In this document: piece by piece, positions 1,482 through 12,192 of the stretch
How positions within the stretch are numbered: the first letter of the stretch is position 1
Layout of the letters: every line of letters begins with the position of its first letter
Translations under genes and position numbers: made by a program
The notes under the pieces: generated by a model
Told to the model about the DNA's origin: nothing
Database searches by the model: none
Seen by the model: only the letters and a program-made list of their open reading frames with translations
DNA from: Oscillospiraceae bacterium
GTDB lineage: Bacteria > Bacillota > Clostridia > Oscillospirales > Ruminococcaceae
Assembly (NCBI GenBank): GCA_017461245.1
Contig: JAFTYW010000045.1
Location: 1 to 35,906, forward strand
DNA length: 35,906 bases
Reading direction: 5' to 3'

Positions 1482-2561
1482 TTGAACAATTCTCGTTTGT
1501 TAAAGCTTATTAAAACAATCCCCGAAAATATTGATGCCGTAATCATCTTTGACAGTGCTAATAAAAGATATTTAACTGGCGTAAATACCGACGATGCAGG
1601 AACGCTGATTATAACCAAAAATTCGGCGTATTTTATCATTGATTCAAGGTATATTGAGGTTGTTGGATGCTCGGTAACTAAAGATATAAATGTTATTTTG
1701 CAAAATGAATTACATTCGCAAATTGCTGAGATTTTTTCAGAGCAATACGTAAAATCTTTCTCTATTGAAACCCAGAAAACGCCTATATCTGTAGCCGAAA
1801 AGTTTAAAAAGGAAATAAAAAATGCAACTCTTGATTTGAGCTATGATGCGGGTGAAGCGATAAATAAGCTGCGCAGCTTAAAAGACCAGACAGAGCTTGA
1901 GCTTATTAAAGCCGCTCAAAAAATCACAGATGATGCATTTGAATACATCCTTCCTAAAATTAAAGAAGGCAAGACCGAAAAAGAGCTTGCTTTAGAGCTT
2001 GAATTTTATATGCGTTCACACGGAGCTGACGGAGTTTCCTTTGATATAATTTTTATCGGCGGAGCAAACACTTCTATGCCGCACGGAGTTCCAAGCGATT
2101 ATAAATTAAAACACGGTGACCTTATTACCATGGATTTTGGCGCTGATTTTAACGGTTACAAAAGCGATATGACCCGTACGGTCGCTCTTGGCGCTGTTTC
2201 GGATGAGCAAAAGAAGGTTTATAATATCGTTTTAGAAGCTCAAGAGAAGGCGATAGAGCAAGTCAAAGAGGGAATGGTCTGCTCTGAAATAGATAAAATC
2301 GCCCGCGATGTAATAAAATCTTACGGCTACGGCGAATATTTCGGACACGCTCTAGGTCACAGCGTCGGTCTTGATATTCACGAATCGCCGAATTTTTCGC
2401 CCAAATGCGATACGCTTTTAAAAGAGGGAATGATCTTGTCGGTCGAGCCTGGAATATATTTGCCGAAGAAATTCGGTGTAAGAATTGAAGATTTGGTGTA
2501 TGTGACCGAAAAAGGCCCAATAAACCTTACAAAAAGCAAGAAATCCTTGATTATATTGTAA
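1482..2561 (+). CDS. pepP: Xaa-Pro aminopeptidase (M24B family)
   Basis: A 359-residue creatinase/aminopeptidase P-type protein that removes N-terminal residues preceding proline. The N-terminal third is the non-catalytic creatinase-like domain; the C-terminal pita-bread domain shows the two-metal ligands: Asp pair in MDFGADFNGYKSDMTRT, His in GHALGHSVGLDIHE, Glu in EPGIYLP and Glu in VRIEDLVYV. The start is a TTG at 1482, supported by GGTGA about eight bases upstream, which lies inside the end of the previous gene. In Clostridia this peptidase usually sits directly before efp, as here, although efp has its own promoter. Assignment to PepP rather than PepQ rests on length and neighbourhood. 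Confidence 0.88.
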   Translation: MNNSRLLKLIKTIPENIDAVIIFDSANKRYLTGVNTDDAGTLIITKNSAYFIIDSRYIEVVGCSVTKDINVILQNELHSQIAEIFSEQYVKSFSIETQKTPISVAEKFKKEIKNATLDLSYDAGEAINKLRSLKDQTELELIKAAQKITDDAFEYILPKIKEGKTEKELALELEFYMRSHGADGVSFDIIFIGGANTSMPHGVPSDYKLKHGDLITMDFGADFNGYKSDMTRTVALGAVSDEQKKVYNIVLEAQEKAIEQVKEGMVCSEIDKIARDVIKSYGYGEYFGHALGHSVGLDIHESPNFSPKCDTLLKEGMILSVEPGIYLPKKFGVRIEDLVYVTEKGPINLTKSKKSLIIL

Positions 2562-2568
2562 AAAACTA

Positions 2569-2597
2569 TTGCAAAAAATGTTTTTTTAATATAGAAT
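2569..2597 (+). promoter_or_regulatory. sigma-A-type promoter for efp
   Basis: TTGCAA at 2569-2574 and TAGAAT at 2592-2597 are separated by 17 bases in a very AT-rich gap, about 40 bases upstream of the EF-P start. Confidence 0.7.
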
Positions 2598-2636
2598 ATT
2601 AATATATTATTAAAAGTATATTTGGAGGTTATCCTA

Positions 2637-3194
2637 ATGGTATCAGCAGGAGAATTCAGAAATGGCGTTACATTCGATATGGATGGAAACGTATATCAGA
2701 TTATCGAGTTTCAGCACGTTAAACCCGGTAAAGGCGCAGCATTCGTAAGAACCAAGATCAAGAACGTTATCAGCGGTGCAGTTGTTGAAAAAACCTTCAA
2801 CCCCACTGAAAAATTCCCCACAGCTTTCGTTGAGAGAAGAGAAATGCAGTATCTCTACAATGATGGCGAGCTCTATTATTTCATGGATCAGGAAACTTAT
2901 GAGCAGATTCCCATCAATGCAGAAACTCTTGGTGAAAACTTTAAGTTCGTAAAAGAGAATATGGATGTAAAGATCCTCTCTTACAAGGGAACTGTTTTCG
3001 GTGTTGAGCCTCCGTTCTTTGTAGAACTCGAAGTAACTCAGACCGATCCCGGATTTAAGGGCGACACTGCTACTAATGCAAGCAAACCCGCAACCTTAGA
3101 GACCGGTGCAGAGATCCGTGTTCCTCTCTTTATTGATGAAGGTGATATCATCAGAATCGATACCAGAACCGGAGAATACATGGAAAGAGCATAA
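2637..3194 (+). CDS. efp: translation elongation factor P
   Basis: A 185-residue EF-P, the canonical family length. It binds between the ribosomal P and E sites and relieves stalling at polyproline stretches. The N-terminal KOW-like domain carries the modification loop [10 protein letters not shown] with the tip lysine at residue 32; two OB-type domains follow, the last with [10 protein letters not shown] and the C-terminal GxI/DTRTGEY signature. The start is the ATG at 2637, nine bases after GGAGG (2624-2628); an in-frame start at 2622 would overlap this site. Its own promoter sits just upstream and a small acidic gene follows after 32 bases, likely co-transcribed up to the terminator at 3661. 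Confidence 0.97.
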
Positions 3195-3226
3195 CCTTTT
3201 CAAAAAATATAAAGGGGGCATTTTAA

Positions 3227-3646
3227 ATGACCTTAACAGAAAAAGCAGCATATTTAAAGGGTCTTGCAAGCGGTCTTGCGCTTGATGAAACAAAACCCGA
3301 AACTAAGCTTATTAACGCACTTATCGACCTCGTTGATGATATTGCTCTTACAGTTGCTGATATTGATGACGAGCTTGCAGTTGTTGTTGAGCAGGTTGAT
3401 TTGATTGATGAGGACCTCGAGTCGTTAGAGGAAGACTTCTATGAGGATGACGAAGAAGACGATGAGGACGAGCTTATTAAAATAACCTGTCCCAACTGCG
3501 ATGACGACATTTATATTGATGATGCTATTCTTAATGATGGCGAGCTCCAGTGTCCCAACTGCGGTGAAACCTTAGAGTTTGACCTTGACTGCTGTGATTG
3601 CGATTGTGATGATTGTGATTGCTGTGAACAGGAGCAGGACGACTAA
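3227..3646 (+). CDS. CD1247-type protein with zinc ribbon and Cys/Asp-rich tail
   Basis: A 139-residue clostridial protein resembling those named CD1247 N-terminal domain-containing. The first 65 residues are predicted helical with a leucine/aspartate pattern (LDETKPETKLINALIDLVDDIA), followed by a strongly acidic linker. A zinc ribbon with two CPNC pairs (ITCPNCDD and LQCPNCGE) comes next. The C-terminus holds seven cysteines alternating with aspartates. The start ATG at 3227 follows GGGGG with normal spacing. Position directly after efp and before a terminator suggests co-expression with EF-P. Function is unknown; metal binding or nucleic acid binding is inference from the ribbon. Confidence 0.8.
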   Translation: MTLTEKAAYLKGLASGLALDETKPETKLINALIDLVDDIALTVADIDDELAVVVEQVDLIDEDLESLEEDFYEDDEEDDEDELIKITCPNCDDDIYIDDAILNDGELQCPNCGETLEFDLDCCDCDCDDCDCCEQEQDD

Positions 3647-3660
3647 CTCAAAACCTATTA

Positions 3661-3692
3661 AAAACAGCCTTAGATTTTGCTAAGGCTGTTTT
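3661..3692 (+). terminator. terminator after the efp unit
   Basis: Perfect 13-bp stem, AAAACAGCCTTAG (3661-3673) with CTAAGGCTGTTTT (3680-3692), loop of six, ending in T's. Confidence 0.85.
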
Positions 3693-3725
3693 GTCTTATC
3701 CTTATTAAATCTTGGAGTGAATTTT

Positions 3726-5216
3726 ATGAACATAAACCAGTTAATTACAGCTCTTGTTAAATATGCTCTTGATAAAAAGCTTATCAGCGAGCTTGATAAG
3801 ACCTATACTGTCAACAGAATAATCGAGATTCTTAATTTAAACGAATATACATACGAGGCTTGCGAGGAAACAGACCTCAGCGTGATTTTAAACGGAATTT
3901 GCGATTATGCAGTAGAGCAGGGAATAGTAGAGGATAGTATTGCCTATCGTGATCTTTTTGATACAAAGATCATGGGTGCGGTTATGCCCAGACCGAGCGA
4001 GGTTATAAAAGAATTTAATACCTTGTATCAGGAGAGTCCCAAGGTTGCAACTGAATATTATTATGATTTAAGCCGTAACAGCAACTATATTCGCGTTGAC
4101 AGAATTAAAAAGGATAAGAAGTGGACAACCGAAACCGAGTTTGGAACTCTTGATATTACAATAAACCTTTCAAAACCCGAAAAGGATCCCAAGGCTATTG
4201 CTGCCGCTAAAAACGCAAAGCAAAGCGGATATCCTAAATGCCTTTTATGCCGTGAAAACGAGGGATATGCAGGCAGAGTTGACTCTCCGGCAAGACAAAA
4301 CCATAGAATTATCCCTATAACCGTTAATCAAAGCGCTTGGGGAATGCAGTATTCGCCTTATGTTTACTATAATGAACACTGCATTGTCTTTAATTTCGAG
4401 CATACTCCTATGAAAATAGAGAAGGCCACGTTTGTAAAGCTCTTTGATTTCGTAAAGCTTTTCCCGCATTATTTCTTAGGCTCAAACGCTGATCTGCCGA
4501 TCGTTGGCGGCTCTATCTTAAGCCACGATCATTTCCAGGGCGGAAGATATGATTTCGCTATGGCAAAGGCTCCTATTGAAAAGACCATTACATTTGACGG
4601 TTTTGAAGACGTTGAGGCAGGAATTGTTAAATGGCCGATGTCAGTTATCAGATTACGTGGAACAAACACTGATAGAATAATAGAACTGTCTGACAAAATT
4701 TTAACAAAGTGGAGAGAGTATACCGACGAGGAAGCCTTTATTTTTGCTGAAACTGATGGTGTGCCTCACAACACGATAACTCCTATTGCAAGAAAAAATG
4801 CTGATATGTTTGAAATGGACTTAGTTCTTCGTAACAATATCACATCAGAAGAACATCCGCTTGGCGTATATCATCCGCATGCACAGTACCATCATATTAA
4901 GAAAGAAAATATTGGTCTTATAGAGGTTATGGGATTAGCTGTTCTTCCTGCAAGGCTTGAAAGGGAACTTTCTAGACTCTGTGACGCTATAATCAATGGA
5001 GACGATATTCGCGCTGATTCAGAACTCGAGAAGCATGCCGATTGGGTAGATGAGATCAAACAAAAATATTCTGATTTAAATAAAGATAATATAAATGGAA
5101 TTATCGAAAAAGAAGTTGGAATTGTTTTTGGAAAAGTTTTGGAATGTGCAGGAGTTTATAAGTGCACAGAAGACGGAAGAAATGCATTTATGAAATTCGT
5201 CAATTCTGTCAAATAA
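3726..5216 (+). CDS. galT: UDP-glucose--hexose-1-phosphate uridylyltransferase (type 2 GalT)
   Basis: A 496-residue Firmicutes-type (long) GalT that exchanges UMP between UDP-glucose and galactose-1-phosphate in the Leloir pathway. The length of about 500 residues and the SHDHFQGG active-site block are typical of the type 2 family, distinct from the 350-residue E. coli enzyme. An adjacent KCLLCREN motif is also characteristic. The chosen start is the ATG at 3726 after TTGGAGTGA; a GTG at 3717 overlaps that binding site. No galK or galE lies nearby, so the gene is a single-gene unit between two terminators. The prophage-like element begins about 80 bases after its stop, leaving the gene intact. 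Confidence 0.95.
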   Translation: MNINQLITALVKYALDKKLISELDKTYTVNRIIEILNLNEYTYEACEETDLSVILNGICDYAVEQGIVEDSIAYRDLFDTKIMGAVMPRPSEVIKEFNTLYQESPKVATEYYYDLSRNSNYIRVDRIKKDKKWTTETEFGTLDITINLSKPEKDPKAIAAAKNAKQSGYPKCLLCRENEGYAGRVDSPARQNHRIIPITVNQSAWGMQYSPYVYYNEHCIVFNFEHTPMKIEKATFVKLFDFVKLFPHYFLGSNADLPIVGGSILSHDHFQGGRYDFAMAKAPIEKTITFDGFEDVEAGIVKWPMSVIRLRGTNTDRIIELSDKILTKWREYTDEEAFIFAETDGVPHNTITPIARKNADMFEMDLVLRNNITSEEHPLGVYHPHAQYHHIKKENIGLIEVMGLAVLPARLERELSRLCDAIINGDDIRADSELEKHADWVDEIKQKYSDLNKDNINGIIEKEVGIVFGKVLECAGVYKCTEDGRNAFMKFVNSVK

Positions 5217-5227
5217 AAAGTACAAGG

Positions 5228-5256
5228 CATCCCGAGATAAAAATCGGGATGTTTTT
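5228..5256 (+). terminator. terminator after galT
   Basis: CATCCCGA (5228-5235) pairs with TCGGGATG (5244-5251), followed by five T's. Confidence 0.85.
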
Positions 5257-5288
5257 ATTATAGGGAAGTCGGTTAAAAAATCTACATA

Positions 5289-5324
5289 AGTAGACAAAAT
5301 AGATGTAGGTTTTGTATAAGTGAC
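5289..5324 (+). other. left element junction, dif-like site (candidate attL)
   Basis: Left arm AGTAGACAAAA (5289-5299), centre TAGATGTAGG (5300-5309) and right arm TTTTGTATAAGTGAC (5310-5324). The right arm is complementary, with one G-T wobble, to 9520-9534 near the other end of the element. The left arm differs slightly from the matching arm there, as expected if it is host DNA. The site also contains a weak promoter-like pair, TAGACA (5291-5296) and TATAAG (5315-5320), spaced 18 bases, which could read into rep. Confidence 0.55.
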
Positions 5325-5353
5325 GATATCTTACTTATTTGTAAGGTATCGTC
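5322..5353 (+). other. 13-bp hairpin in the rep leader
   Basis: GACGATATCTTAC (5322-5334) pairs with GTAAGGTATCGTC (5341-5353), one G-T wobble, six-base loop. It is followed by ATTTTTTATTTTG, so as RNA it looks like an attenuator or terminator; as ssDNA it could be part of a replication origin. It lies 27 bases before the rep start and overlaps the end of the left junction site by three bases. Confidence 0.65.
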
Positions 5354-5379
5354 ATTTTTTATTTTGTAGGTGATGCAAT

Positions 5380-5928
5380 GTGGCGGATTTTAAAGAAACT
5401 AAAATATATAACGTTTCGCTTATCTCGTATGCTCCTGTATCGTTTATCAAATCTACTCTTGAAAATCATATTTCACAATTAAAAGCTTATGCATTTTGTT
5501 TTCACGATAGAGATACTGATAAAGAGCCTCACACTCATATATTGATATGTTGCAAATCTCCTATGTATCTACAAACTTATATAAATTGGTTTAGGTATAT
5601 AAATGAGAATGACCAATTACAAAACACTTTCGGTCAAAAGCTTGTAGATATAAAAGGAGCTTATCAATATCTCATTCACGAAAATGACATTGATAAATAC
5701 CAATACTTACCCACTGATAGAAAGTCCTATAATGCAGATTTTTTCTCTATCTCCTCTCACGAGGATAAATCAATATTAGCTTTAACAGATATTCTTGCAG
5801 GTTGCTCGCTTCGTGATTGCGCTTTAAGATATGGCAGAGATTTTATATACCACTATGCACACATTCGACAACTCATTTTAGACATAGAGGAACAAGAGGG
5901 CATAACCCTTTTGAATATAAAAAAATAA
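5380..5928 (+). CDS. HUH rolling-circle replication initiator (Rep_2/RepB-like)
   Basis: A 182-residue protein with the layout of plasmid replication proteins of the Rep_2 family (pMV158 RepB type), which nick one strand at an origin and start rolling-circle replication. Motif 1 region is AFCFHDRDTDKEP; the metal-binding HUH-type block is PHTHILI with His51 and His53; the nucleophile region is AYQYLIHEND with Tyr95 and Tyr97 as candidates. The remaining 80 residues are helical without an obvious helicase. The start is a GTG at 5380 after TAGGTGATG. It is the first gene of the element, so it takes the role of phage gene II. Origin position is not proven; the hairpin just upstream and the structured end at 9106-9418 are candidates. 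Confidence 0.82.
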   Translation: MADFKETKIYNVSLISYAPVSFIKSTLENHISQLKAYAFCFHDRDTDKEPHTHILICCKSPMYLQTYINWFRYINENDQLQNTFGQKLVDIKGAYQYLIHENDIDKYQYLPTDRKSYNADFFSISSHEDKSILALTDILAGCSLRDCALRYGRDFIYHYAHIRQLILDIEEQEGITLLNIKK

Positions 5929-5949
5929 AACAAAAAAGGAGACAAAAAA

Positions 5950-6192
5950 ATGAAAGTAATCGGAAAAGGAAAGTATGCAGGCGAGTATCAAGGAACAAAG
6001 TATGAAAAACTGTTTTATGCAGTAGAAACAACACCGCCCAAAAAATTCGCAAATTTCCACGGTCAGTATGTTGAAACAATCGTTTGTCCCGCAACAATCG
6101 AAAACGATATTGCAAATATCGGTGATGAAATCAATGTTTATTACAACAAATATGGAAAAGTCGACGCCATTTTTGTTGTAAAAGATAAATAA
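5950..6192 (+). CDS. probable phage ssDNA-binding protein (gene V-like)
   Basis: An 80-residue, mostly beta-type soluble protein with alternating charged and aromatic residues (KYAGEYQGTKYEKLFYAVE and YYNKYGKVDAIFVV), no signal peptide or membrane span. It starts at an ATG after AAAGGAGA, 21 bases after rep. In filamentous phages a small OB-like protein in this slot, between Rep and coat gene, coats the viral strand before assembly. I do not recognise a specific family signature, so this role is inferred from size, composition and position. Alternative: a small regulator of Rep. Confidence 0.5.
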   Translation: MKVIGKGKYAGEYQGTKYEKLFYAVETTPPKKFANFHGQYVETIVCPATIENDIANIGDEINVYYNKYGKVDAIFVVKDK

Positions 6193-6213
6193 AAAATTAG
6201 GAGGGAAAGGAGA

Positions 6214-6393
6214 ATGGAGAACGCTATGGCAACTCTTTTAGGTGACATCGGCACATTTTTCACACAGTCTATCACTTGGCTTGGTGATGTGCTTGACGTA
6301 GTAACCGGAAGTCCTGCACTTCTCGTTATGGTAATCGCAATGCCTATCGTAGGCTTTGCCGTCGGTCTGCTTTCAAGACTTATCCGTCTTTAA
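6214..6393 (+). CDS. candidate major coat protein (pVIII-like), 59 aa
   Basis: A 59-residue protein starting MENAMATLLGDIG with very strong translation signals (AGGAGGGAAAGGAG just upstream). Residues 1-33 are amphipathic with acidic residues (Glu2, Asp11, Asp25, Asp28), residues 34-53 form one hydrophobic span (PALLVMVIAMPIVGFAVGLL), and the C-terminus is basic (SRLIRL). That is the layout of filamentous phage coat subunits: acidic outside, span, basic end facing DNA. No cleavable signal peptide is seen, as in some Pf3-like coats. A terminator follows within nine bases, as after gene VIII in M13-type phages, consistent with high expression. Identity is inferred. Confidence 0.7.
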   Translation: MENAMATLLGDIGTFFTQSITWLGDVLDVVTGSPALLVMVIAMPIVGFAVGLLSRLIRL

Positions 6394-6401
6394 GCAAAAT
6401 T

Positions 6402-6437
6402 ACCGCCCTTGGCCGCAAAAGTCGAGGGCGGTTTTTT
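6402..6437 (+). terminator. terminator after the coat gene
   Basis: ACCGCCCT (6402-6409) pairs with AGGGCGGT (6425-6432), followed by TTTTT. Expected to raise coat expression relative to downstream assembly genes. Confidence 0.85.
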
Positions 6438-6451
6438 CTTTGAGGTGATTT

Positions 6452-7405
6452 ATGAAAAAAATAATATCTTTAATTATTGTTGCAGTCTTTTCTATAACTG
6501 CATTATGCATTCCTTCTTTTGCATATAGTCAGAATTTCAGAAACTATTTTAAGCTTGATTATATGTCTATAGGTTCATTACCTTCCTCAGATTACTATTA
6601 CGTTATTCCTGAGGACTATAACGATATCCACGTTTATCCAAAGCAGGAAGATGCACCCTTTGGAGCTTTTTCTTTCGTTCACGTTTATTTCGATTATGAT
6701 GGCAGTCAACAGATTAAAGCTGGAGATCGCCTTGTCTGTTCTTTTGATTTTACAGTTGCAGACTTTTCTACTGTCGATAATCCTAAGCACTCGACCGCTT
6801 TTGCCAGCATTCAAGCAAAGTATAATGGAAATAAATTTCAGAAGGTCGGCACGTGCGATTTGATTCATTCGGGTTATGATTATACTCAAGGCACAAATAT
6901 CTATCGTTTTTTGGTAAATATAGATTTTTATGCACCTGAGAATATTGAAACGTTGTATTTTTCTTTTGGAGTAAATTTTAATGGGTTTGAGCCTGTAACG
7001 TCTCATGTTCTTTCTGCAACGTTTAATACTGTCGAGAATTTTTACCTTGGTTCTGCTGATTCTCCTGAAGCTCCTAAATACGACTCTAATACTGAAACTA
7101 TCGGCAAAACTGACGATTTAAAAAATCAAGAGGATAAACTAATGCAAGATACCGAGCAGGGTAGAGAAAGCACACTTTCATTATTTGCAGGTCTTGCAGA
7201 CTTAATAACCGAGCTTTCAGTTCCTCTTATGGCTATATCTGCATTATTTAATTATTTCGTAGGCAATTCTATTTTAAATAGTGTGCTTCAAATTTCATTA
7301 ACTCTTGGTCTTTTAGCCTTTGTATTTAATTTAGGTCAATCCCTTATTTCTCGTTCAAATAATCAACGTGGACAAAAACAAAATAATAAAAAAGGTGGTG
7401 GTTAA
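6452..7405 (+). CDS. secreted, C-terminally anchored minor coat/adsorption protein (pIII-like)
   Basis: A 317-residue protein with a classic signal peptide (MKKIISLIIVAVFSITALC, predicted cut after SFA near residue 24), an extracellular region of about 190 residues rich in Tyr, Asp and Phe, a charged linker (around KNQEDKLMQDTEQ), then two hydrophobic stretches (about residues 245-295) and a basic Asn/Lys/Gly tail ending KKGGG. The start ATG at 6452 follows GAGGTGA. In filamentous phages the gene after the coat gene encodes pIII, the tip protein that binds the host and anchors in the membrane; topology and position agree. No sequence match to a known pIII was recognised, so the receptor is unknown. 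Confidence 0.65.
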   Translation: MKKIISLIIVAVFSITALCIPSFAYSQNFRNYFKLDYMSIGSLPSSDYYYVIPEDYNDIHVYPKQEDAPFGAFSFVHVYFDYDGSQQIKAGDRLVCSFDFTVADFSTVDNPKHSTAFASIQAKYNGNKFQKVGTCDLIHSGYDYTQGTNIYRFLVNIDFYAPENIETLYFSFGVNFNGFEPVTSHVLSATFNTVENFYLGSADSPEAPKYDSNTETIGKTDDLKNQEDKLMQDTEQGRESTLSLFAGLADLITELSVPLMAISALFNYFVGNSILNSVLQISLTLGLLAFVFNLGQSLISRSNNQRGQKQNNKKGGG

Positions 7406-7407
7406 TT

Positions 7408-7620
7408 GTGCTAAATTTCTTTGATTGGATAGTCGGCTTTTTTGAAACTATCGGTGAAATTATTACTATGATTATAGATAGCCTTTTAACTGCTATCTCC
7501 GTCATTGCTTCTGCGGTTGCAGTTCCTGTAATCTTTACAGGTCTTGTTCCTCAAATTCTCTTAACTGCTATGTTGGCTCTTGTTTCTCTTGCGGTTATAA
7601 AATTCTTGTTAGGTAGGTGA
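7408..7620 (+). CDS. small hydrophobic phage protein, 70 aa (pVI-like position)
   Basis: A 70-residue protein with two strongly hydrophobic segments (about residues 14-33 and 36-65) and a short basic end (KFLLGR). It starts at a GTG two bases after the pIII-like stop, with AAAGGTGGTGG upstream. In inoviruses a hydrophobic protein (pVI, or DUF2523-type) follows pIII and caps the same end of the virion; that role is inferred from place and hydropathy only. Confidence 0.6.
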   Translation: MLNFFDWIVGFFETIGEIITMIIDSLLTAISVIASAVAVPVIFTGLVPQILLTAMLALVSLAVIKFLLGR

Positions 7621-7624
7621 TAAA

Positions 7625-7798
7625 ATGACACAAGCAATAAAAAGTATAATCGACTTGTTTTGGAATTTATACAATACTGTAAATGATAAGCTTGTCTTTG
7701 ATTTATTCGGCTTTGAAGTTCATTTTATGACTTTTGCCGTTTCTGCAATCGTTTTAGGCTTTGTTATATCTATCTTTTGGAAAGGAGTTAAATCGTGA
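7625..7798 (+). CDS. single-span membrane protein, 57 aa
   Basis: Reads MTQAIKSIIDLFWNLYN at the start, with an amphipathic N-terminal half, one hydrophobic span (about residues 35-51) and a basic tail (WKGVKS). It begins four bases after the previous stop with AGGTAGGTGA as binding site, and its last codons overlap the next start. Size and topology fit a virion tip or assembly protein; family not recognised. Confidence 0.55.
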   Translation: MTQAIKSIIDLFWNLYNTVNDKLVFDLFGFEVHFMTFAVSAIVLGFVISIFWKGVKS

Positions 7799-7911
7799 TA
7801 ATTTTACCTTGTTTAGAATTCTTTTTTCTATCGTTTAACTATCTGACTGCGGTTTTTCTGCTTATCTTTGCTTTTGCCTTACTTTTTAAAATAACGGGGG
7901 TATTTAAATGA
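7795..7911 (+). CDS. hydrophobic micro-protein, 38 aa
   Basis: A 38-residue protein beginning MIILPCLEFFFLSFNY, one hydrophobic span and a Lys-containing end (FKITGVFK). The GTG start overlaps the previous stop (GTGA), and AAAGGAG lies eight bases upstream, which argues for translational coupling. It also overlaps the next start. Such sizes match pVII/pIX-type tip proteins of filamentous phages, but identity is inferred. Confidence 0.5.
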   Translation: MIILPCLEFFFLSFNYLTAVFLLIFAFALLFKITGVFK

Positions 7912-7985
7912 GTCCTACTGTAGTTTTTCTTATAGCAATATTTATGGTCTTATGTATATTTCTTTTCGGAGGAGGTAGCAACTAA
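7908..7985 (+). CDS. hydrophobic micro-protein, 25 aa
   Basis: Twenty-five residues (MSPTVVFLIAIFMVL at the start, then CIFLFGGGSN), almost entirely one membrane span. The ATG overlaps the previous stop (ATGA), and its stop overlaps the next start (TAATG), so it is sandwiched by coupling on both sides. GGGGG about ten bases upstream could bind ribosomes. pVII/pIX-like by size and place; could also be only a coupling spacer. Confidence 0.42.
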   Translation: MSPTVVFLIAIFMVLCIFLFGGGSN

Positions 7986-8173
7986 TGCAAACAATTTTAT
8001 CTGCTTTAAGGTCAATTCTCGGTGAGCCTGCTTTTTATGATGCAGGTACTGGATATAGCGGTTCTTGGGATTATGGTCTTATGATAGAATATCTTGTCGG
8101 TGCCTTGATCCTTATGATTGTAATATCATCAGTATTTAGGTTTCTTATGCTTTTAGTGAAAGGAAAGAGATAA
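7985..8173 (+). CDS. single-span phage protein, 62 aa (second coat-like candidate)
   Basis: A 62-residue protein with a polar, Gly/Tyr/Asp-rich N-terminal half (GEPAFYDAGTGYSGSWDYG), one hydrophobic span (about residues 36-51) and a basic end (LLVKGKR). It starts in the TAATG overlap with GGAGGTAG upstream and ends two bases before the assembly ATPase. The acidic-span-basic layout is like a coat subunit, so it could be a minor coat protein or, since the ATPase lacks a membrane span, its membrane partner. Confidence 0.55.
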   Translation: MQTILSALRSILGEPAFYDAGTGYSGSWDYGLMIEYLVGALILMIVISSVFRFLMLLVKGKR

Positions 8174-8174
8174 A

Positions 8175-8786
8175 ATGATAAGAGTTTTCTTTGGAAATAT
8201 CGGTTGTGGTAAAACTACCTTTGCCTGCAGGCAGTTCTATAAACAACACAAAAATGATATAAAACTACTTAAAAAAGGTGAACTACCTCTATATGATAAT
8301 TACTACGCTAATTTCGACACTACGATAGCAAAAAAATGCTCTCTTGAGGGTCTTGGACAATGGACTTTTCCCGAACATTCGTATATTATCGTAGACGAGG
8401 CAGGAATTACATATAATAACCGAAAATTCAAATCATTACCGCAGGAGACTATTGCTTGGTTTAAGCTTTCAAGGCATTATAAATGCGACGTTGATTTTAT
8501 ATCGCAATCTTGGGATGATATGGATATAACTATCCGTAGACTTGCAAGCGAATTGTGGTATATAAAAAAGCTCGGTCCTTTTACTATGCTGCGTAGAGTT
8601 TATAAGAGGGTAGGAATAGACGAAAGCACACACCAAATCGTCGACTTTTACGAGTTCGGTAAAATCTTACCTTGTTTCTTGCCTTATCCGTTTCATAGAG
8701 ATAATATAAAAATATTCCTTCGCAAGCCTTACTATAAGTATTTCGACTCTTACTCAAAAGAACCTTTGCCCGAAAAATATAATTGA
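8175..8786 (+). CDS. Zot/pI-like filamentous phage assembly ATPase, short form
   Basis: A 203-residue ATPase of the Zot (zonular occludens toxin)/gene I family, which drives extrusion of filamentous phage through the membrane. Walker A is GNIGCGKT (residues 7-14) and Walker B is YIIVDEAG with Asp74-Glu75; the family's SQ/Arg region follows (FISQSWDDMDITIRRLASE). Typical Zot/pI proteins run to 350-400 residues with a transmembrane span and outside domain. This one stops after the ATPase domain and a Pro/Tyr-rich tail, and shows no membrane span. That could suit a host with no outer membrane. The toxin label in the family name does not imply toxicity here. Confidence 0.82.
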   Translation: MIRVFFGNIGCGKTTFACRQFYKQHKNDIKLLKKGELPLYDNYYANFDTTIAKKCSLEGLGQWTFPEHSYIIVDEAGITYNNRKFKSLPQETIAWFKLSRHYKCDVDFISQSWDDMDITIRRLASELWYIKKLGPFTMLRRVYKRVGIDESTHQIVDFYEFGKILPCFLPYPFHRDNIKIFLRKPYYKYFDSYSKEPLPEKYN

Positions 8787-8811
8787 CAAACTCGCTCAAA
8801 GGCATTATAAT
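8783..8811 (+). promoter_or_regulatory. perfect-consensus rightward promoter at the end of the ATPase gene
   Basis: TTGACA (8783-8788) and TATAAT (8806-8811), spaced exactly 17 bases. No plus-strand gene follows: transcription would start near the hairpin at 8820 and run antisense to the small minus-strand gene at 8853-8984. It may produce a regulatory RNA, or be fortuitous because its -10 overlaps the A-run of the opposite-strand terminator. Confidence 0.55.
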
Positions 8812-8843
8812 AAAAAAGAGGGGAGAGTGGTGAGACTCTCCCC
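8812..8843 (-). terminator. terminator of the minus-strand small gene
   Basis: GGGGAGAGT (8820-8828) pairs with ACTCTCCCC (8835-8843); read leftwards the stem is followed by TCTTTTTT, nine bases beyond the stop of the 43-aa gene. Confidence 0.75.
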
Positions 8844-8852
8844 CAGAAAAAC

Positions 8853-8984
8853 TTATTTGTTTTTCTTGTTTTTAGCCCTGTCAGGCTTTTTGAATTTAGC
8901 TTTGAAATCTACGATTATGTAATCAACCTCGTAGCCTTTCAAGGCTTTTTTCTTTGCCTTTAAGAGCTTAATAATTTTCTGCAT
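8853..8984 (-). CDS. small basic protein, 43 aa, opposite strand to the phage genes
   Basis: Reads MQKIIKLLKAKKKALKGY at the start and continues with EVDYIIVDFKAKFKK, ending in a Lys/Asn tail. About 17 of 43 residues are Lys or Arg; there is no hydrophobic span. Evidence that it is real: an excellent ribosome binding site (AAAGGAGGTGA, seven bases before the ATG), and a terminator directly after the stop. It is the only clear gene of the element on the minus strand. A nucleic-acid-binding, regulatory or accessory role is possible, but I recognise no family. Confidence 0.65.
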   Translation of the reverse strand: MQKIIKLLKAKKKALKGYEVDYIIVDFKAKFKKPDRAKNKKNK

Positions 8985-9013
8985 CGGACTCACCTCCTTT
9001 GCAGAGAGATTAT

Positions 9014-9036
9014 AAAAAGAGGGAATTAACCCCTCT
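9014..9036 (-). terminator. weak terminator-like hairpin on the minus strand
   Basis: AGAGGG (9018-9023) pairs with CCCTCT (9031-9036), loop of seven; read leftwards it is followed by TTTTT. It lies between a possible 15-codon frame and the 43-aa gene, and may reduce transcription into the latter. Confidence 0.45.
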
Positions 9037-9038
9037 CT

Positions 9039-9086
9039 TTACCAAGGTTTAGTTAAGTAGTAATACAACCATTTTACTAACTTCAT
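9039..9086 (-). CDS. possible 15-aa leader peptide or micro-gene
   Basis: A minus-strand frame MKLVKWLYYYLTKPW with AAGAAGGG nine bases before the ATG, and a terminator-like hairpin immediately after its stop. The arrangement (short frame, then hairpin, then gene) resembles an attenuator leader for the 43-aa gene, or a tiny aromatic-rich membrane-active peptide. At this length chance cannot be excluded. Confidence 0.3.
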   Translation of the reverse strand: MKLVKWLYYYLTKPW

Positions 9087-9105
9087 TGTAACCAACCCTT
9101 CTTTA

Positions 9106-9337
9106 GTTGCTATATTAAATTTTCAAGGTGCATGCCGTTGTCGGCAAGGGATAAAAAACACATAAAAATAGACCTACCTTTTATTCCGTCATAGCGGTAA
9201 TGATATACACCGCTATGACAATAGGGAATAAACGGTAGGGCGGTTTTTGTCAATATAAAACGAAGTGATATTGACAAAAAATTTTAATGTGTTATCCCTG
9301 ATCACCGACTACGGCTTGCAACTTGAAATATAACAAC
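9106..9337. repeat. large three-way stem structure in the phage intergenic region
   Basis: A long outer stem is built from nested pairs: 9106-9109 with 9334-9337, 9121-9127 with 9322-9328, 9129-9132 with 9317-9320, 9134-9138 with 9311-9315, 9140-9144 with 9305-9309, and 9147-9154 with 9292-9299. Inside it are two hairpins: 9173-9239 (6-, 8- and 10-bp segments, inner TCATAGCGGT with ACCGCTATGA) and 9244-9280 (13 bp, TTTTTGTCAATAT with ATATTGACAAAAA). Filamentous phage intergenic regions hold packaging-signal and origin hairpins, so this is a candidate packaging signal or minus-strand origin. It carries no open frame of note. Confidence 0.75.
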
Positions 9338-9355
9338 TTAAAAATTAAGTGCCAC

Positions 9356-9418
9356 TTTGGCGGCGCAGCCGATGCAGAACACATACTGCGTCTGTGTTCT
9401 GCATAGCCAATAGCCAAA
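9356..9418. repeat. extended hairpin, candidate packaging or replication signal
   Basis: A perfect 12-bp stem, ATGCAGAACACA (9372-9383) with TGTGTTCTGCAT (9393-9404), nine-base loop, plus an outer TTTGGC/GCCAAA pair (9356-9361 with 9413-9418). No T-run follows on either strand, so it is not an ordinary terminator. Confidence 0.65.
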
Positions 9419-9483
9419 TTGTTAAATCTGCATAAATTCAAACTATCAAAATTGTATCATTCTACAAAATAAAAATAATTGTA

Positions 9484-9512
9484 TTGACTTTTTAGGTTTA
9501 ATATATTAAACT
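9484..9512 (+). promoter_or_regulatory. promoter with 16-bp palindromic operator, pointing out of the right end
   Basis: TTGACT (9484-9489) and TAAACT (9507-9512), spaced 17 bases. A perfect palindrome, GTTTAATATATTAAAC (9496-9511), covers the spacer and -10, as expected of a repressor operator. In the circular form it would read through the joined ends into rep about 175 bases further on; in the integrated form it points at the host gene at 9826. No repressor gene is recognised in the element. Confidence 0.5.
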
Positions 9513-9519
9513 AATTATA

Positions 9520-9624
9520 GTCACTTGTACAAAACGATTATTTTGTCAGCTCTGATAGGGTGTAAGCCTATCAGGGCATTAACTGAATCTATTTAGTTAG
9601 ACAAAATAAATATTTTGTATAACT
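9520..9624 (+). other. right element end: inverted dif-like pair, candidate folded attP/attR
   Basis: Two inverted dif-like copies. The first has arm GTCACTTGTACAAAA (9520-9534), centre CGATTA (9535-9540) and arm TTTTGTCAGC (9541-9550). The second is a near-perfect palindrome, AGTTAGACAAAATA (9595-9608) with TATTTTGTATAACT (9611-9624). TTATTTTGTC (9538-9547) is exactly complementary to GACAAAATAA (9600-9609). Between them sits a perfect 8-bp hairpin, CTGATAGG (9552-9559) with CCTATCAG (9567-9574). This matches the inverted attP layout that folds in single-stranded CTX-phi DNA. Host DNA would resume at about 9607. Confidence 0.6.
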
Positions 9625-9629
9625 CGGGG

Positions 9630-9671
9630 AAGTAATTAAAGCTGAAAATCGGCAAAACAGCTTGATTACTT
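9630..9671. repeat. inverted repeat beyond the right junction
   Basis: AAGTAATTAAAGCTG (9630-9644) pairs with CAGCTTGATTACTT (9658-9671), one bulged A and one wobble, 13-base loop. No T-run on either side. Under the proposed boundary it is host DNA; it may insulate the next gene. Apart from a half-site-like TATTTTGTAT near 9682, nothing else is seen until the promoter at 9759. Confidence 0.5.
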
Positions 9672-9758
9672 CATTAAACTCTATTTTGTATTAAATAAAA
9701 AATAATTAATTTATGTAAGTCATTTTACAATCTTTATTTTAAAACATCTTCTTTCCTT

Positions 9759-9788
9759 TTATCGAAAAGTTTTTCTATTGCATATAAT
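9759..9788 (+). promoter_or_regulatory. weak promoter candidate for the Se/S carrier gene
   Basis: TATAAT at 9783-9788 with a poor -35 (TTATCG, 9759-9764) 18 bases upstream, 38 bases before the ATG at 9826. Confidence 0.4.
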
Positions 9789-9825
9789 GTAATGGTTTAA
9801 ATTAAAAATTCAGGAAGGTGTTTTC

Positions 9826-10062
9826 ATGCAAAAGATTTATATCAATATGCCTTCGGTTACATTTGCAATGAAATCAGAAAAAATTCTTAGTGCAAATCAT
9901 ATTTATGGCTTGGTAGTTAAAACTCCCTCTCAATTCAGCGGCTGTGGCTGTGGCTACAGTATTGTTATAAATTCCAACCAATTAGAAGCTGCTAAAAGCA
10001 TTTTAGATAAAAATAATATCAAAATAAATGATATAAGATCGTCTGATGAGGTGTATTTATGA
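9826..10062 (+). CDS. DUF3343 putative Se/S carrier-like protein
   Basis: A 78-residue protein of the DUF3343 family (Pfam label: putative Se/S carrier protein-like). The hallmark SGCGCGYSIVI segment lies near residues 42-52, giving two cysteines that could hold sulfur or selenium. The start ATG follows GGAAGGTG. Its stop overlaps the next start (ATGA), coupling it to a cysteine desulfurase, which supports transfer of sulfur or selenium from that enzyme. Direct evidence for selenium use (selA, selD) is not in the window, so sulfur is equally possible. Confidence 0.82.
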   Translation: MQKIYINMPSVTFAMKSEKILSANHIYGLVVKTPSQFSGCGCGYSIVINSNQLEAAKSILDKNNIKINDIRSSDEVYL

Positions 10063-11195
10063 TTTATTTTGATAATGCAGCCACATCTTATCCAAAGCCG
10101 CTCGAAACCGCAAAAGCAGTCTATGACAGCATCGTCAGATATGGTGGAAATCCAGGTCGAAGCGGTCATAAAATGTCCTTAAATGCTGCCAAAATCGTTT
10201 ATAATTTAAGAGAAAAAGCAGCCGATTTCTTTGGAATTAGTGATTGCGAACGGGTTATTTTAACAAAAAACTGTACCGAAGCGCTTAATTTAGCCATTTT
10301 CAGCGTGATGAAAAACGGCGGAAATGCTGTTATTTCTAATTTTGAACATAATTCGGTTATGCGGCCATTAGAATATCTCAAAAACAACAAAATTTGCAGT
10401 TATAAAGTTGCAAAAATTTCGTTTGAAAATGCGGATTTGACCGTTAAAGAGTTTGAAAAACTTGTTGACAGCAATACAAAAATGATAATTTGTACCCATG
10501 CATCAAATGTTACGGGAAAAATTGCGCCAATCAAAGAAATTTCAGAACTCTGCAAACGTAAAAATATGATTTTTTGCGTAGATGCGTCGCAAACTGCAGG
10601 CATTGTTCCTATTAATATGCAGCAAGACTGCATAGATATTTTGTGTTGCCCGGGTCACAAGGGGCTTTTTGGCCCTACCGGCACAGGTTTACTGATTGCA
10701 AATCAAAAAATTTCGATCTCCCCTATTATTTACGGCGGTACCGGAAGCGTATCAGTGAGCTTAGAACAGCCCGATTTTCTGCCGGATATAGCTGAAAGTG
10801 GAACTGTTAATGTTTCTGGTGCAGCAGGCTTATCTGCGGGCATTTCTTTCATAAATAAGGTTGGAATTAACAATATTTACAGTCACGAACTTGAGTTGGC
10901 ACGTTATTTTCACAAAAAACTGATGCAAATGCCGCATATTTTGCTTTATTCAAGCGAGCCTACCGAAAATAAATCTGTAGCAACCATTTCATTCAATGCA
11001 AAGGGCAAAGCCTCTACAGATGTTGCTGACACACTTGATAAGTATAATATAGCTGTCAGAAGCGGCTTGCATTGCTCGCCGATGGCGCATAGCTTTTTAG
11101 GAACAAGAGAAACCGGTACTGTACGGGCAAGTTTTTCGTATTTTAACACTAAAAAAGAAATAGATTATTTCTGCAACATTCTAAGACAAATATAA
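10059..11195 (+). CDS. cysteine desulfurase / selenocysteine lyase-like (class V aminotransferase fold)
   Basis: A 378-residue PLP enzyme that takes sulfur (or selenium) from cysteine (or selenocysteine). The PLP lysine is in CCPGHKGLFGPTGTG; the conserved His and Asp are in ICTHASNVTGK and FCVDASQTAG; the catalytic cysteine is in RSGLHCSPMAH near the C-terminus; the final domain ends with GTVRASFSYFNT. The length is normal. It overlaps the DUF3343 gene by four bases, so the two are coupled. The group is the family often annotated as cysteine desulfurase family protein in Clostridia, different from IscS in having a short loop around the active cysteine. No scaffold protein gene is adjacent. 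Confidence 0.9.
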   Translation: MIYFDNAATSYPKPLETAKAVYDSIVRYGGNPGRSGHKMSLNAAKIVYNLREKAADFFGISDCERVILTKNCTEALNLAIFSVMKNGGNAVISNFEHNSVMRPLEYLKNNKICSYKVAKISFENADLTVKEFEKLVDSNTKMIICTHASNVTGKIAPIKEISELCKRKNMIFCVDASQTAGIVPINMQQDCIDILCCPGHKGLFGPTGTGLLIANQKISISPIIYGGTGSVSVSLEQPDFLPDIAESGTVNVSGAAGLSAGISFINKVGINNIYSHELELARYFHKKLMQMPHILLYSSEPTENKSVATISFNAKGKASTDVADTLDKYNIAVRSGLHCSPMAHSFLGTRETGTVRASFSYFNTKKEIDYFCNILRQI

Positions 11196-11228
11196 TTATA
11201 AATTTATTATTAAATAGACAAAAACTCA

Positions 11229-11256
11229 TTGAAATTTCTAAAAAATATGGTAAAAT
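11229..11256 (+). promoter_or_regulatory. promoter for cdaA-cdaR
   Basis: TTGAAA (11229-11234) and TAAAAT (11251-11256), spaced 16 bases, 39 bases before the cdaA ATG. Confidence 0.65.
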
Positions 11257-11295
11257 AATAATATAAAAGCATAATAAGCAAAGGAATTGTGTTAT

Positions 11296-12192
11296 ATGCA
11301 GGACTTTTTTATTGCAGTTGGAGATTTCTTTTCCAGTCTATTTAATGATTTAATTAATTTTGACAGGTGGTATCTTGATTTGATAGATATCGCCCTTGTT
11401 GCCGTTATCTTGTATTTCGCAATTAAATTTGTAAGAGAAACAAGAGCTGCTCAGCTCGTTAAAGGAATTATTCTTTTTCTTGTCTTTTACCTTTTTGCAA
11501 TAGTATTTGATCTAACGACAATTTCCTTTATTCTGCAGTACGTTTTTCAATATGGTCTTGTTGCTATTGCGCTTATATTTCAGCCTGAGATCAGAAGAGC
11601 TCTCGAAAAGGTTGGTCGTAGCCAGATTTCCCACATTTTCAAGCAGCCCTCTAAGGATACTGACTCCAAATGGAGATATTCTATTGACCCGATTTGTGAG
11701 GCTTGTTACCGATTATCCTGCGACAAAACCGGCGCTTTGATTGTTATCGAGCGCAAAACTCGCTTAGGCGAAAGCGTTGAACGCGCCGTTGTTATTGATT
11801 CGATCCCCTCAGTTTCTTTAATTACAAACATATTCTTCACCAACTCACCTCTTCACGACGGCGGTCTTATCATTCGTGATGGTAGACTGTATGCCGCAAG
11901 CTGCTTCTTCCAGCCCTCTGACAAGGTTGAGAATATCAGCCTTGGCTCAAGGCATAGAGCCGCTTTGGGTGTTAGTGAGGTTTCAGATGCAATCGTTATT
12001 GTTGTTTCTGAGGAAACAGGAATCATTTCCATCGCAACTGATGGCAAGCTTATCCGCAATTTTACAAAGGAAACCCTTAAAGAGTATCTGAACGAAAATC
12101 TGCTTGATTTTGATCTTGATGAAAACGGAAATCAAGTTCAAAAGAAACAAAGTAAGATCAAATCAGTTCTGGGAAGGCGGAATGCAAAATGA
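11296..12192 (+). CDS. cdaA: diadenylate cyclase CdaA
   Basis: A 298-residue membrane diadenylate cyclase making cyclic di-AMP from two ATP; the messenger governs potassium, osmotic and wall homeostasis in Firmicutes. Three N-terminal membrane spans (residues about 25-100) precede the DAC domain, which shows TNSPLHDGGLIIRDG and the LGSRHRAALG (RHR) motif, then VSEETG. The usual DGA motif reads DGG here. The start ATG at 11296 follows AAGGA by ten bases; an upstream TTG is less likely. Its stop overlaps the cdaR start (ATGA), giving coupling. The usual third gene, glmM, is not present downstream. Confidence 0.95.
   Translation: MQDFFIAVGDFFSSLFNDLINFDRWYLDLIDIALVAVILYFAIKFVRETRAAQLVKGIILFLVFYLFAIVFDLTTISFILQYVFQYGLVAIALIFQPEIRRALEKVGRSQISHIFKQPSKDTDSKWRYSIDPICEACYRLSCDKTGALIVIERKTRLGESVERAVVIDSIPSVSLITNIFFTNSPLHDGGLIIRDGRLYAASCFFQPSDKVENISLGSRHRAALGVSEVSDAIVIVVSEETGIISIATDGKLIRNFTKETLKEYLNENLLDFDLDENGNQVQKKQSKIKSVLGRRNAK

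What the first reader, a model, noticed from the sequence alone, without database searches (positions are those of the whole stretch)
9520..9624. CTX-phi-like folded single-strand attachment site formed by both ends
Seen: GTCACTTGTACAAAA (9520-9534) pairs with 5310-5324 (15 bp, one wobble) once the ends are joined, and 9538-9547 pairs perfectly with 9600-9609; the centre stays unpaired (six bases against ten), and an 8-bp hairpin sits in the loop. Known: CTX-phi has two inverted dif-like arms that fold in ssDNA so that host XerC/XerD can integrate it. Inference: this element, which has no integrase, uses the same trick. I do not know of this described for a Firmicutes phage.
Basis: partly seen in the sequence, partly recalled or inferred. 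Interest (0 to 1): 0.92.

Follow-up and report, generated by a model that had tools for sequence, protein, structure and literature searches.

The report
Folded dif-targeting site of Clostridia inovirus
A small filamentous phage integrated in an Oscillospiraceae-type bacterium carries a pair of mirrored attachment sites that can fold into the kind of single-stranded hairpin by which the cholera-toxin phage inserts itself at its host's chromosome-terminus site, a strategy I found described only in gamma-proteobacteria.

Summary
Window 5300-9606 is a 4.3-kb inovirus prophage (Rep, Zot, no integrase found) inserted at the host dif site. A second species of the genus carries a different inovirus plus satellites at the orthologous place, inside which the contig's cumulative GC skew peaks. 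Joined, the phage ends give attP1 (GACAAAA-10 nt-TTTTGTATAA); an inverted attP2 (GTACAAAA-6 nt-TTTTGTC) lies about 40 nt upstream. As single strand they fold into a forked hairpin (z -10.4) with an open centre. Published CTXphi centres are 12 and 5-7 nt. All six XerC-side centre bases can pair, by Watson-Crick or G-T, with host dif, CTXphi's published specificity rule. The host encodes XerC-like, XerD-like and FtsK-gamma proteins. Two other prophages of the order, at unrelated dif sequences, share the two-site layout (3 of 14 resolved elements); 11 do not. Five circular faecal inovirus records fold similarly. The closest relative found (Zot 76% identical) has different ends and no such fold, so the att module is exchangeable. 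Integration itself is untested. This is a new member of the CTXphi type, in a phylum where I found none described; one relative sits in a host without a detected XerD.

The parts
3717..5216 (+). host gene, galactose-1-phosphate uridylyltransferase (left flank; orthologous flank in the second species)
   Evidence: Pfam PF01087/PF02744; L007:3332-4945 has the same domains
5286..5324 (+). attL: host left dif arm (to about 5299), phage attP1 centre TAGATGTAGG (5300-5309), phage right arm TTTTGTATAAGTGAC (5310-5324)
   Evidence: sequence
5380..5928 (+). replication protein (Rep_OBD)
   Evidence: PF01719 E 1e-8
5950..6192 (+). 80-aa protein, weakly like a protein annotated RstB in a gut inovirus record
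   Evidence: phmmer E 1.1e-5 in a comparison with 11 chosen sequences only; no PHROG match
6214..6393 (+). 59-aa ORF, candidate major coat protein
   Evidence: position and size only; no family match
6452..7405 (+). 317-aa ORF, candidate pIII-like adsorption protein
   Evidence: position and size only; no family match
8175..8786 (+). Zot/pI morphogenesis ATPase
   Evidence: PF05707 E 5.2e-9, phrog_197 E 1.4e-15
9519..9551 (-). attP2: inverted dif-like site, arms around a 6-nt centre CGATTA (9535-9540)
9549..9599 (+). loop of the fork with two predicted hairpins (9549-9577; about 9580-9599)
   Evidence: fold
9596..9623 (+). attR = intact dif GTTAGACAAAA-TAAATA-TTTTGTATAAC; left arm read as phage-derived, centre and right arm as host-derived
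9826..10062 (+). host gene, Se/S carrier-like protein (right flank)
   Evidence: PF11823; orthologue beside the array in the second species

Best explanation
The element is an integrase-less inovirus with a CTXphi-type attachment site. In the (+) strand, attP1 and attP2 pair into a forked hairpin that resembles a double-stranded dif site with a bulged centre. The host XerC (best candidate: the 328-aa XerC-like protein), bound with XerD, exchanges one strand at the left-arm/centre boundary with the chromosomal dif, and the resulting junction is resolved by replication. The product is what the window shows: attL with a 10-nt centre, attP2, and one intact dif on the right. Shown here: the geometry, the predicted fold, the location at dif, the parts, and recurrence of the layout. 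Inferred: that XerC/XerD catalyse it, that single-stranded DNA is the substrate, and that insertion is not readily reversed.
For: Fold z -10.4. Centres of 10 and 6 nt against 12 and 5-7 in CTXphi (passages of PMC4246890; table in PMC3089051). The first six bases of the attP1 centre, TAGATG, pair 6 of 6 with the dif bottom strand, 4 Watson-Crick and 2 G-T; in CTXphi such pairing next to the XerC site sets specificity. The orthologous site in a second species holds another inovirus and satellites, and the cumulative GC skew of that contig is highest at 237 kb, inside the 231.7-241.9 kb array; in the window itself it is highest at 15 kb, about 5 kb from dif. XerC-like and XerD-like genes and FtsK gamma are in the host genome. 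L151 and L085b have the same two-site layout at unrelated dif sequences (0 of 1000 shuffles each). Five circular inovirus records (two sequence clusters) fold likewise just after rep.
Against: No experiment and no read data. The nearest relative found (L007, Zot 76% identical) has different ends and no fold beyond chance (z -0.7 with the correct join). 11 of 14 resolved elements show no convincing second site (L076 and L092 re-tested at 29 and 123 of 1000). No empty dif of this host was found: a pattern search of 41 genomes met only the two occupied sites. One of 1000 shuffles reaches the window's score. Both Xer proteins fall below the NCBIfam XerC/XerD equivalog cut-offs.
Confidence: 0.8

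Rival explanations
1. Double-stranded Xer integration (VGJphi-like): attP1 alone recombines with dif in the replicative form; attP2 is a relic or has another role.
For: L007's phage and 11 of 14 resolved elements lie at dif-like sites without a convincing second site, so insertion there without this fold evidently occurs in these bacteria.
Against: attP1 has a 10-nt centre; in CTXphi the extended attP1 centre is reported unsuitable for Xer exchange as double strand (passage of PMC4246890). attP2 pairs with attP1 over both arms in three elements with unrelated arms.
Confidence: 0.1
2. The fork is a replication or packaging hairpin (minus-strand origin or packaging signal) that overlaps the prophage end.
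For: Filamentous phages carry such hairpins (recalled, no call); the fold lies in a hairpin-rich intergenic stretch.
Against: The paired arms are the dif arms themselves, and the fork sits on the integration junction in the window, L151 and L085b.
Confidence: 0.06
3. A tyrosine recombinase of another element (such as the small one of the dif-linked satellite in L007) rather than the host Xer proteins inserts the phage.
For: L007 has satellites with a 208-aa tyrosine recombinase at the same dif; the window's genome holds 8 PF00589 matches, of which XerC-like and XerD-like are two.
Against: No satellite is seen in the window; the site is the host dif; L008, L076, L151 and L085b lie next to a family-wide xer gene.
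Confidence: 0.04

Closest known systems
CTXphi-type IMEX (CTXphi of Vibrio cholerae; PMC3089051 says the attP sites of CUS-1 and Ypf have features for the same ssDNA route)
   Same: No integrase, Zot; two inverted dif-like sites some tens of nt apart; attP1 centre extended, attP2 centre about 6; forked (+)-strand fold; one intact dif plus two dif-like sites after insertion; XerC-side pairing with dif
   Different: Oscillospiraceae-type host; different arms and dif; a Rep_OBD replication protein; 4.3 kb instead of about 7 kb; about 40 nt rather than 90 nt between the sites; no experimental proof
TLCphi- and VGJphi-type IMEX
   Same: Integrase-less elements at dif with one dif-like site; the half-site elements here (L007 phage, L008, L087) look more like these
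   Different: The window phage has a second inverted site and an extended centre
Inoviruses of Roux et al. 2019 (PMC6813254) and Enterocloster inoviruses (PMC10061712)
   Same: Inovirus prophages, some in Gram-positive gut bacteria, flanked by direct repeats
   Different: In the passages I saw the att sites are described as direct repeats (some in a tRNA or by an integrase); words beginning with Xer do not occur in either main text
XerS/difSL and XerH/difH single-recombinase systems (PMC5357621, passages)
   Same: Recombinase gene next to a dif-like palindrome, as in 23 of the 30 best-scoring xer loci of the host family
   Different: The window's own host has an unlinked, less symmetric dif and both XerC-like and XerD-like proteins

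Membership tests
CTXphi-type IMEX | integrated at host dif near the terminus | tested here: met
   orthologous site in a second species; GC-skew maximum at 237 kb of G002 contig 14, array at 231.7-241.9 kb; no empty site seen
CTXphi-type IMEX | no phage integrase | tested here: met
   no PF00589 match on the window contig
CTXphi-type IMEX | two inverted dif-like sites, attP1 with extended centre and attP2 with 5-7 nt | tested here: met
   10 and 6 nt
CTXphi-type IMEX | (+) strand folds into a forked hairpin | tested here: met
   predicted fold only, z -10.4
CTXphi-type IMEX | attP1 centre bases on the XerC side can pair with dif | tested here: met
   6 of 6, two as G-T; rule from PMC3089051 and PMC4246890
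CTXphi-type IMEX | host XerC and XerD present | tested here: met
   XerC-like 328 aa and XerD-like 296 aa, both below the NCBIfam XerC/XerD cut-offs; XerD orthologue set
CTXphi-type IMEX | integration uses ssDNA and needs XerC catalysis | not testable with these tools
   needs experiment
TLCphi/VGJphi-type IMEX | single dif-like attP, no inverted partner | tested here: not met
   second site present
Inoviridae | Zot/pI ATPase with a small Rep and small ORFs in one block | tested here: met
   Zot and Rep_OBD matches; coat proteins by position only

The most novel reading that the evidence does not exclude
CTXphi-type single-strand integration is a recurrent inovirus strategy in Clostridia and does not need the two-recombinase XerC/XerD pair: in hosts with one Xer gene beside a fully symmetric dif (as G082 for L085b), asymmetry is supplied by the bulged phage centre rather than by two different recombinases.
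Probability: 0.45. Interest if true: 0.82.

Novelty: new member of a known kind. Interest (0 to 1): 0.7.

Why it matters
It would take a single-strand integration mechanism that I found described only in gamma-proteobacteria to Clostridia, at a concrete, testable site, and would explain how some inoviruses without an integrase enter these chromosomes. Comparing hosts that have XerC plus XerD with hosts that seem to have a single Xer could test what gives Xer strand exchange its direction.

Tried and rejected
Searches of viral contigs with the Zot protein, a Zot alignment and Rep found no relative; a dif-core pattern there gave 6 loci that I did not follow. A dif pattern with up to 3 mismatches found no empty site in 41 genomes. 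The unanchored scan for forks was borderline, and its first version missed the window. Considered and rejected: a chance hairpin, a replication or packaging hairpin, double-strand Xer exchange with attP1 alone, and a recombinase acting in trans. L168 looked like a candidate by its arms but had no second site. L009 gives a fork of score 22, within the shuffled range, and its right end was not resolved; it is not counted. The likeness of the 80-aa protein to RstB is too weak to claim.

How the 14 were chosen: of 50 Zot loci that I fetched, a subset of the hits (one search ran on all 50), these are the elements whose two ends I could place by a direct repeat holding a dif-like arm; L085 gives two of them. 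L007's inovirus and satellite were left out of that test because they share the other arm and were only folded; L167 was also left out. My first fold of the L007 phage had three wrong centre bases at the join and of its satellite a one-base slip; redone: z -0.7 and -6.1. In one search the joins of L161 and L168 were out of register; redone (z -2.0 and -4.4, no two-site pairing seen). One search was not affected.

Circular records: 64 matched, 28 fetched. 24 were scanned for dif-like arms and 2 had both arms of a fork; 3 were fetched afterwards as relatives of those 2; one (L215) was fetched but not analysed. In the anchored test Dulem virus 74 gave 0 of 500 and Dulem virus 70 gave 10 of 500; the other three were only folded. 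Their 9- and 6-nt centres are read by eye.

Full report
Observation. 9520-9534 pairs with 5310-5324 over 15 bases with one wobble, 9538-9547 pairs with 9600-9609, and the loop contains the 8-bp hairpin and a second one. The junction 9606/5300 follows from comparing attL (AGTAGACAAAATAGATGTAGGTTTTGTATAAG) with attR (GTTAGACAAAATAAATATTTTGTATAAC), which share AGACAAAATA; joining anywhere in that stretch gives the same attP. Folded as DNA, the 123-nt joined site has -29.6 kcal/mol against -7.4 (sd 2.1) for 500 dinucleotide shuffles, z -10.4. Without anchoring at the junction the two-site pattern is only borderline.

The element. It lies between a host galT gene and a host Se/S-carrier gene. The assigned genes are on the + strand: Rep (Rep_OBD), an 80-aa protein, small ORFs, a 317-aa ORF and Zot (PF05707, phrog_197). 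No tyrosine-recombinase gene was found on this contig.

The site is dif. A second species of the same genus (G002; L007, a MAG titled Oscillospiraceae bacterium) has the same flanking genes. Between them lie a different inovirus (Zot 76% identical, another Rep, other ends) and two tandem copies (2544 bp apart) of a satellite with a Rep and a small tyrosine recombinase, all joined through ATATTTTGTATA-type sites. The cumulative GC skew of that 309-kb contig is highest at 237 kb, inside the 231.7-241.9 kb array. The window's genome encodes a XerC-like 328-aa protein, a XerD-like 296-aa protein and an FtsK gamma domain.

CTXphi-type anatomy. From PMC3089051 (part 1 of 3 of the text read) and passages of PMC4246890 and PMC5357621: CTXphi has two inverted dif-like sites about 90 bp apart, attP1 with a 12-bp and attP2 with a 5-7-bp centre; they pair in the (+) strand; only XerC catalysis is needed; specificity depends on pairing of the centre bases next to the XerC site; insertion leaves one functional dif and two dif-like sites. 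The window has attP1 with 10 nt, attP2 with 6 nt, about 40 nt between them, one intact dif at 9596-9623, and a centre (TAGATG against TAAATA) that can pair 6 of 6 with the dif bottom strand, two of them as G-T. CTXphi El Tor attP1 on dif1 gives 4 of 6 by the same count, L151 5 of 6 and L085b 4 of 6.

Relatives. Zot searches covered 41 genomes of relatives (2 with a match), 396 of the family (24), 394 of the order (25) and 391 of the class (21); the sets overlap. Of 50 fetched Zot loci, 14 elements could be placed at both ends by a direct repeat with a dif-like arm. With attP1 held fixed and flanks shuffled, three have a second inverted site beyond chance: the window (27; 1 of 1000 shuffles), L151 in G655 (25; 0 of 1000; centres 10 and 6-7; dif AACTCAACAAAATAAAAATTTTGTTGAGTT) and L085b in G082 (28; 0 of 1000; centres 9 and 6; dif ATTTCGCTAAATGAAAATTTAGCGAAAT). 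Four ORFs scanned inside each of L151 and L085b gave Zot and Rep_trans but no integrase; the tyrosine recombinase lies just outside, next to dif. The other 11 gave no convincing second site. Five circular inovirus records from lemur faeces (Dulem virus 67, 69, 70, 73, 74; two sequence clusters, hosts unknown) have a similar fork right after rep, of which one of the two tested anchored gave 0 of 500 and the other 10 of 500.

Which recombinase. The 328-aa XerC-like protein has a match in 57 of 61 family genomes. In the 30 best-scoring loci, 23 have a symmetric dif-like palindrome within 260 nt upstream, 2 have a palindrome that I judge not dif-like, 5 have none. None of those 23 genomes has a XerD orthologue at E below 1e-80, whereas 4 of the 7 others do, the window's genome among them; in all 6 of 36 genomes have one (several genomes are incomplete). 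Arm symmetry is 9 of 12 positions in the window host's dif and 10 of 12 in G002, against 12 of 12 in the five xer-adjacent sites compared. So XerC plus XerD is the fitting reading for the window. L151's host G655 has both an adjacent xer-dif and a XerD-like gene, while no XerD was detected in G082, the host of L085b.

Literature. No CTX-type site in a Firmicutes phage turned up in searches (listings, plus passages of the papers named above and of PMC3025954, and PMC6813254 and PMC10061712). The library holds only open-licence papers, so this is not proof of absence.

Verdict. The fold, the site and the parts fit CTXphi-type integration, and the layout recurs in two relatives with unrelated arms. 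The step from anatomy to reaction (XerC/XerD acting on folded single-stranded DNA) is inference, rated 0.8.

Noticed in passing
L007 10114-15210: Two tandem copies, 2544 bp apart, of a satellite (REP_ORF2-G2P Rep plus a 208-aa tyrosine recombinase) at the host dif beside an inovirus; its joined att region also folds strongly (z -6.1), reminiscent of the CTX/RS1/TLC arrays of Vibrio.
   Followed up: partly
L110-L139, L106, L008, L076, L151, L085: XerC-like genes of this host family often have a symmetric dif-like palindrome directly upstream (23 of the 30 best-scoring family loci), with no XerD orthologue detected in those 23 genomes: an apparent single-recombinase xer-dif module in Clostridia.
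   Followed up: partly
L164 and L170 (G886:C1, Zot at 1918064, 1925377, 1932690): Three copies of an inovirus Zot gene exactly 7313 bp apart; the stretch compared (over 10 kb at that offset) is identical, so a tandem array.
   Followed up: no
L195 2195-2344 versus L214 2240-2389: These two forks (Dulem virus 70 and 69) differ at 4 of 150 bases, 3 of them in the two attP centres, as CTXphi variants differ in their centres; hosts unknown.
   Followed up: partly
L007 9977-10237: A scaffold gap of 10 N lies between two copies of a stretch of over 100 bases that starts at the att site, probably an assembly-graph branch where junctions meet.
   Followed up: no
L090 (reverse strand) 2143-11900: Long shared stretches about 8.5 kb apart around a Zot gene, suggesting two related inovirus copies in tandem, with no dif-like repeat recognised.
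   Followed up: no
window 8820-9350 and 9620-9680: Further inverted repeats: between Zot and attP2 in the phage, and one on the host side of dif (GAAGTAATTAAAGC...GCTTGATTACTTC).
   Followed up: no
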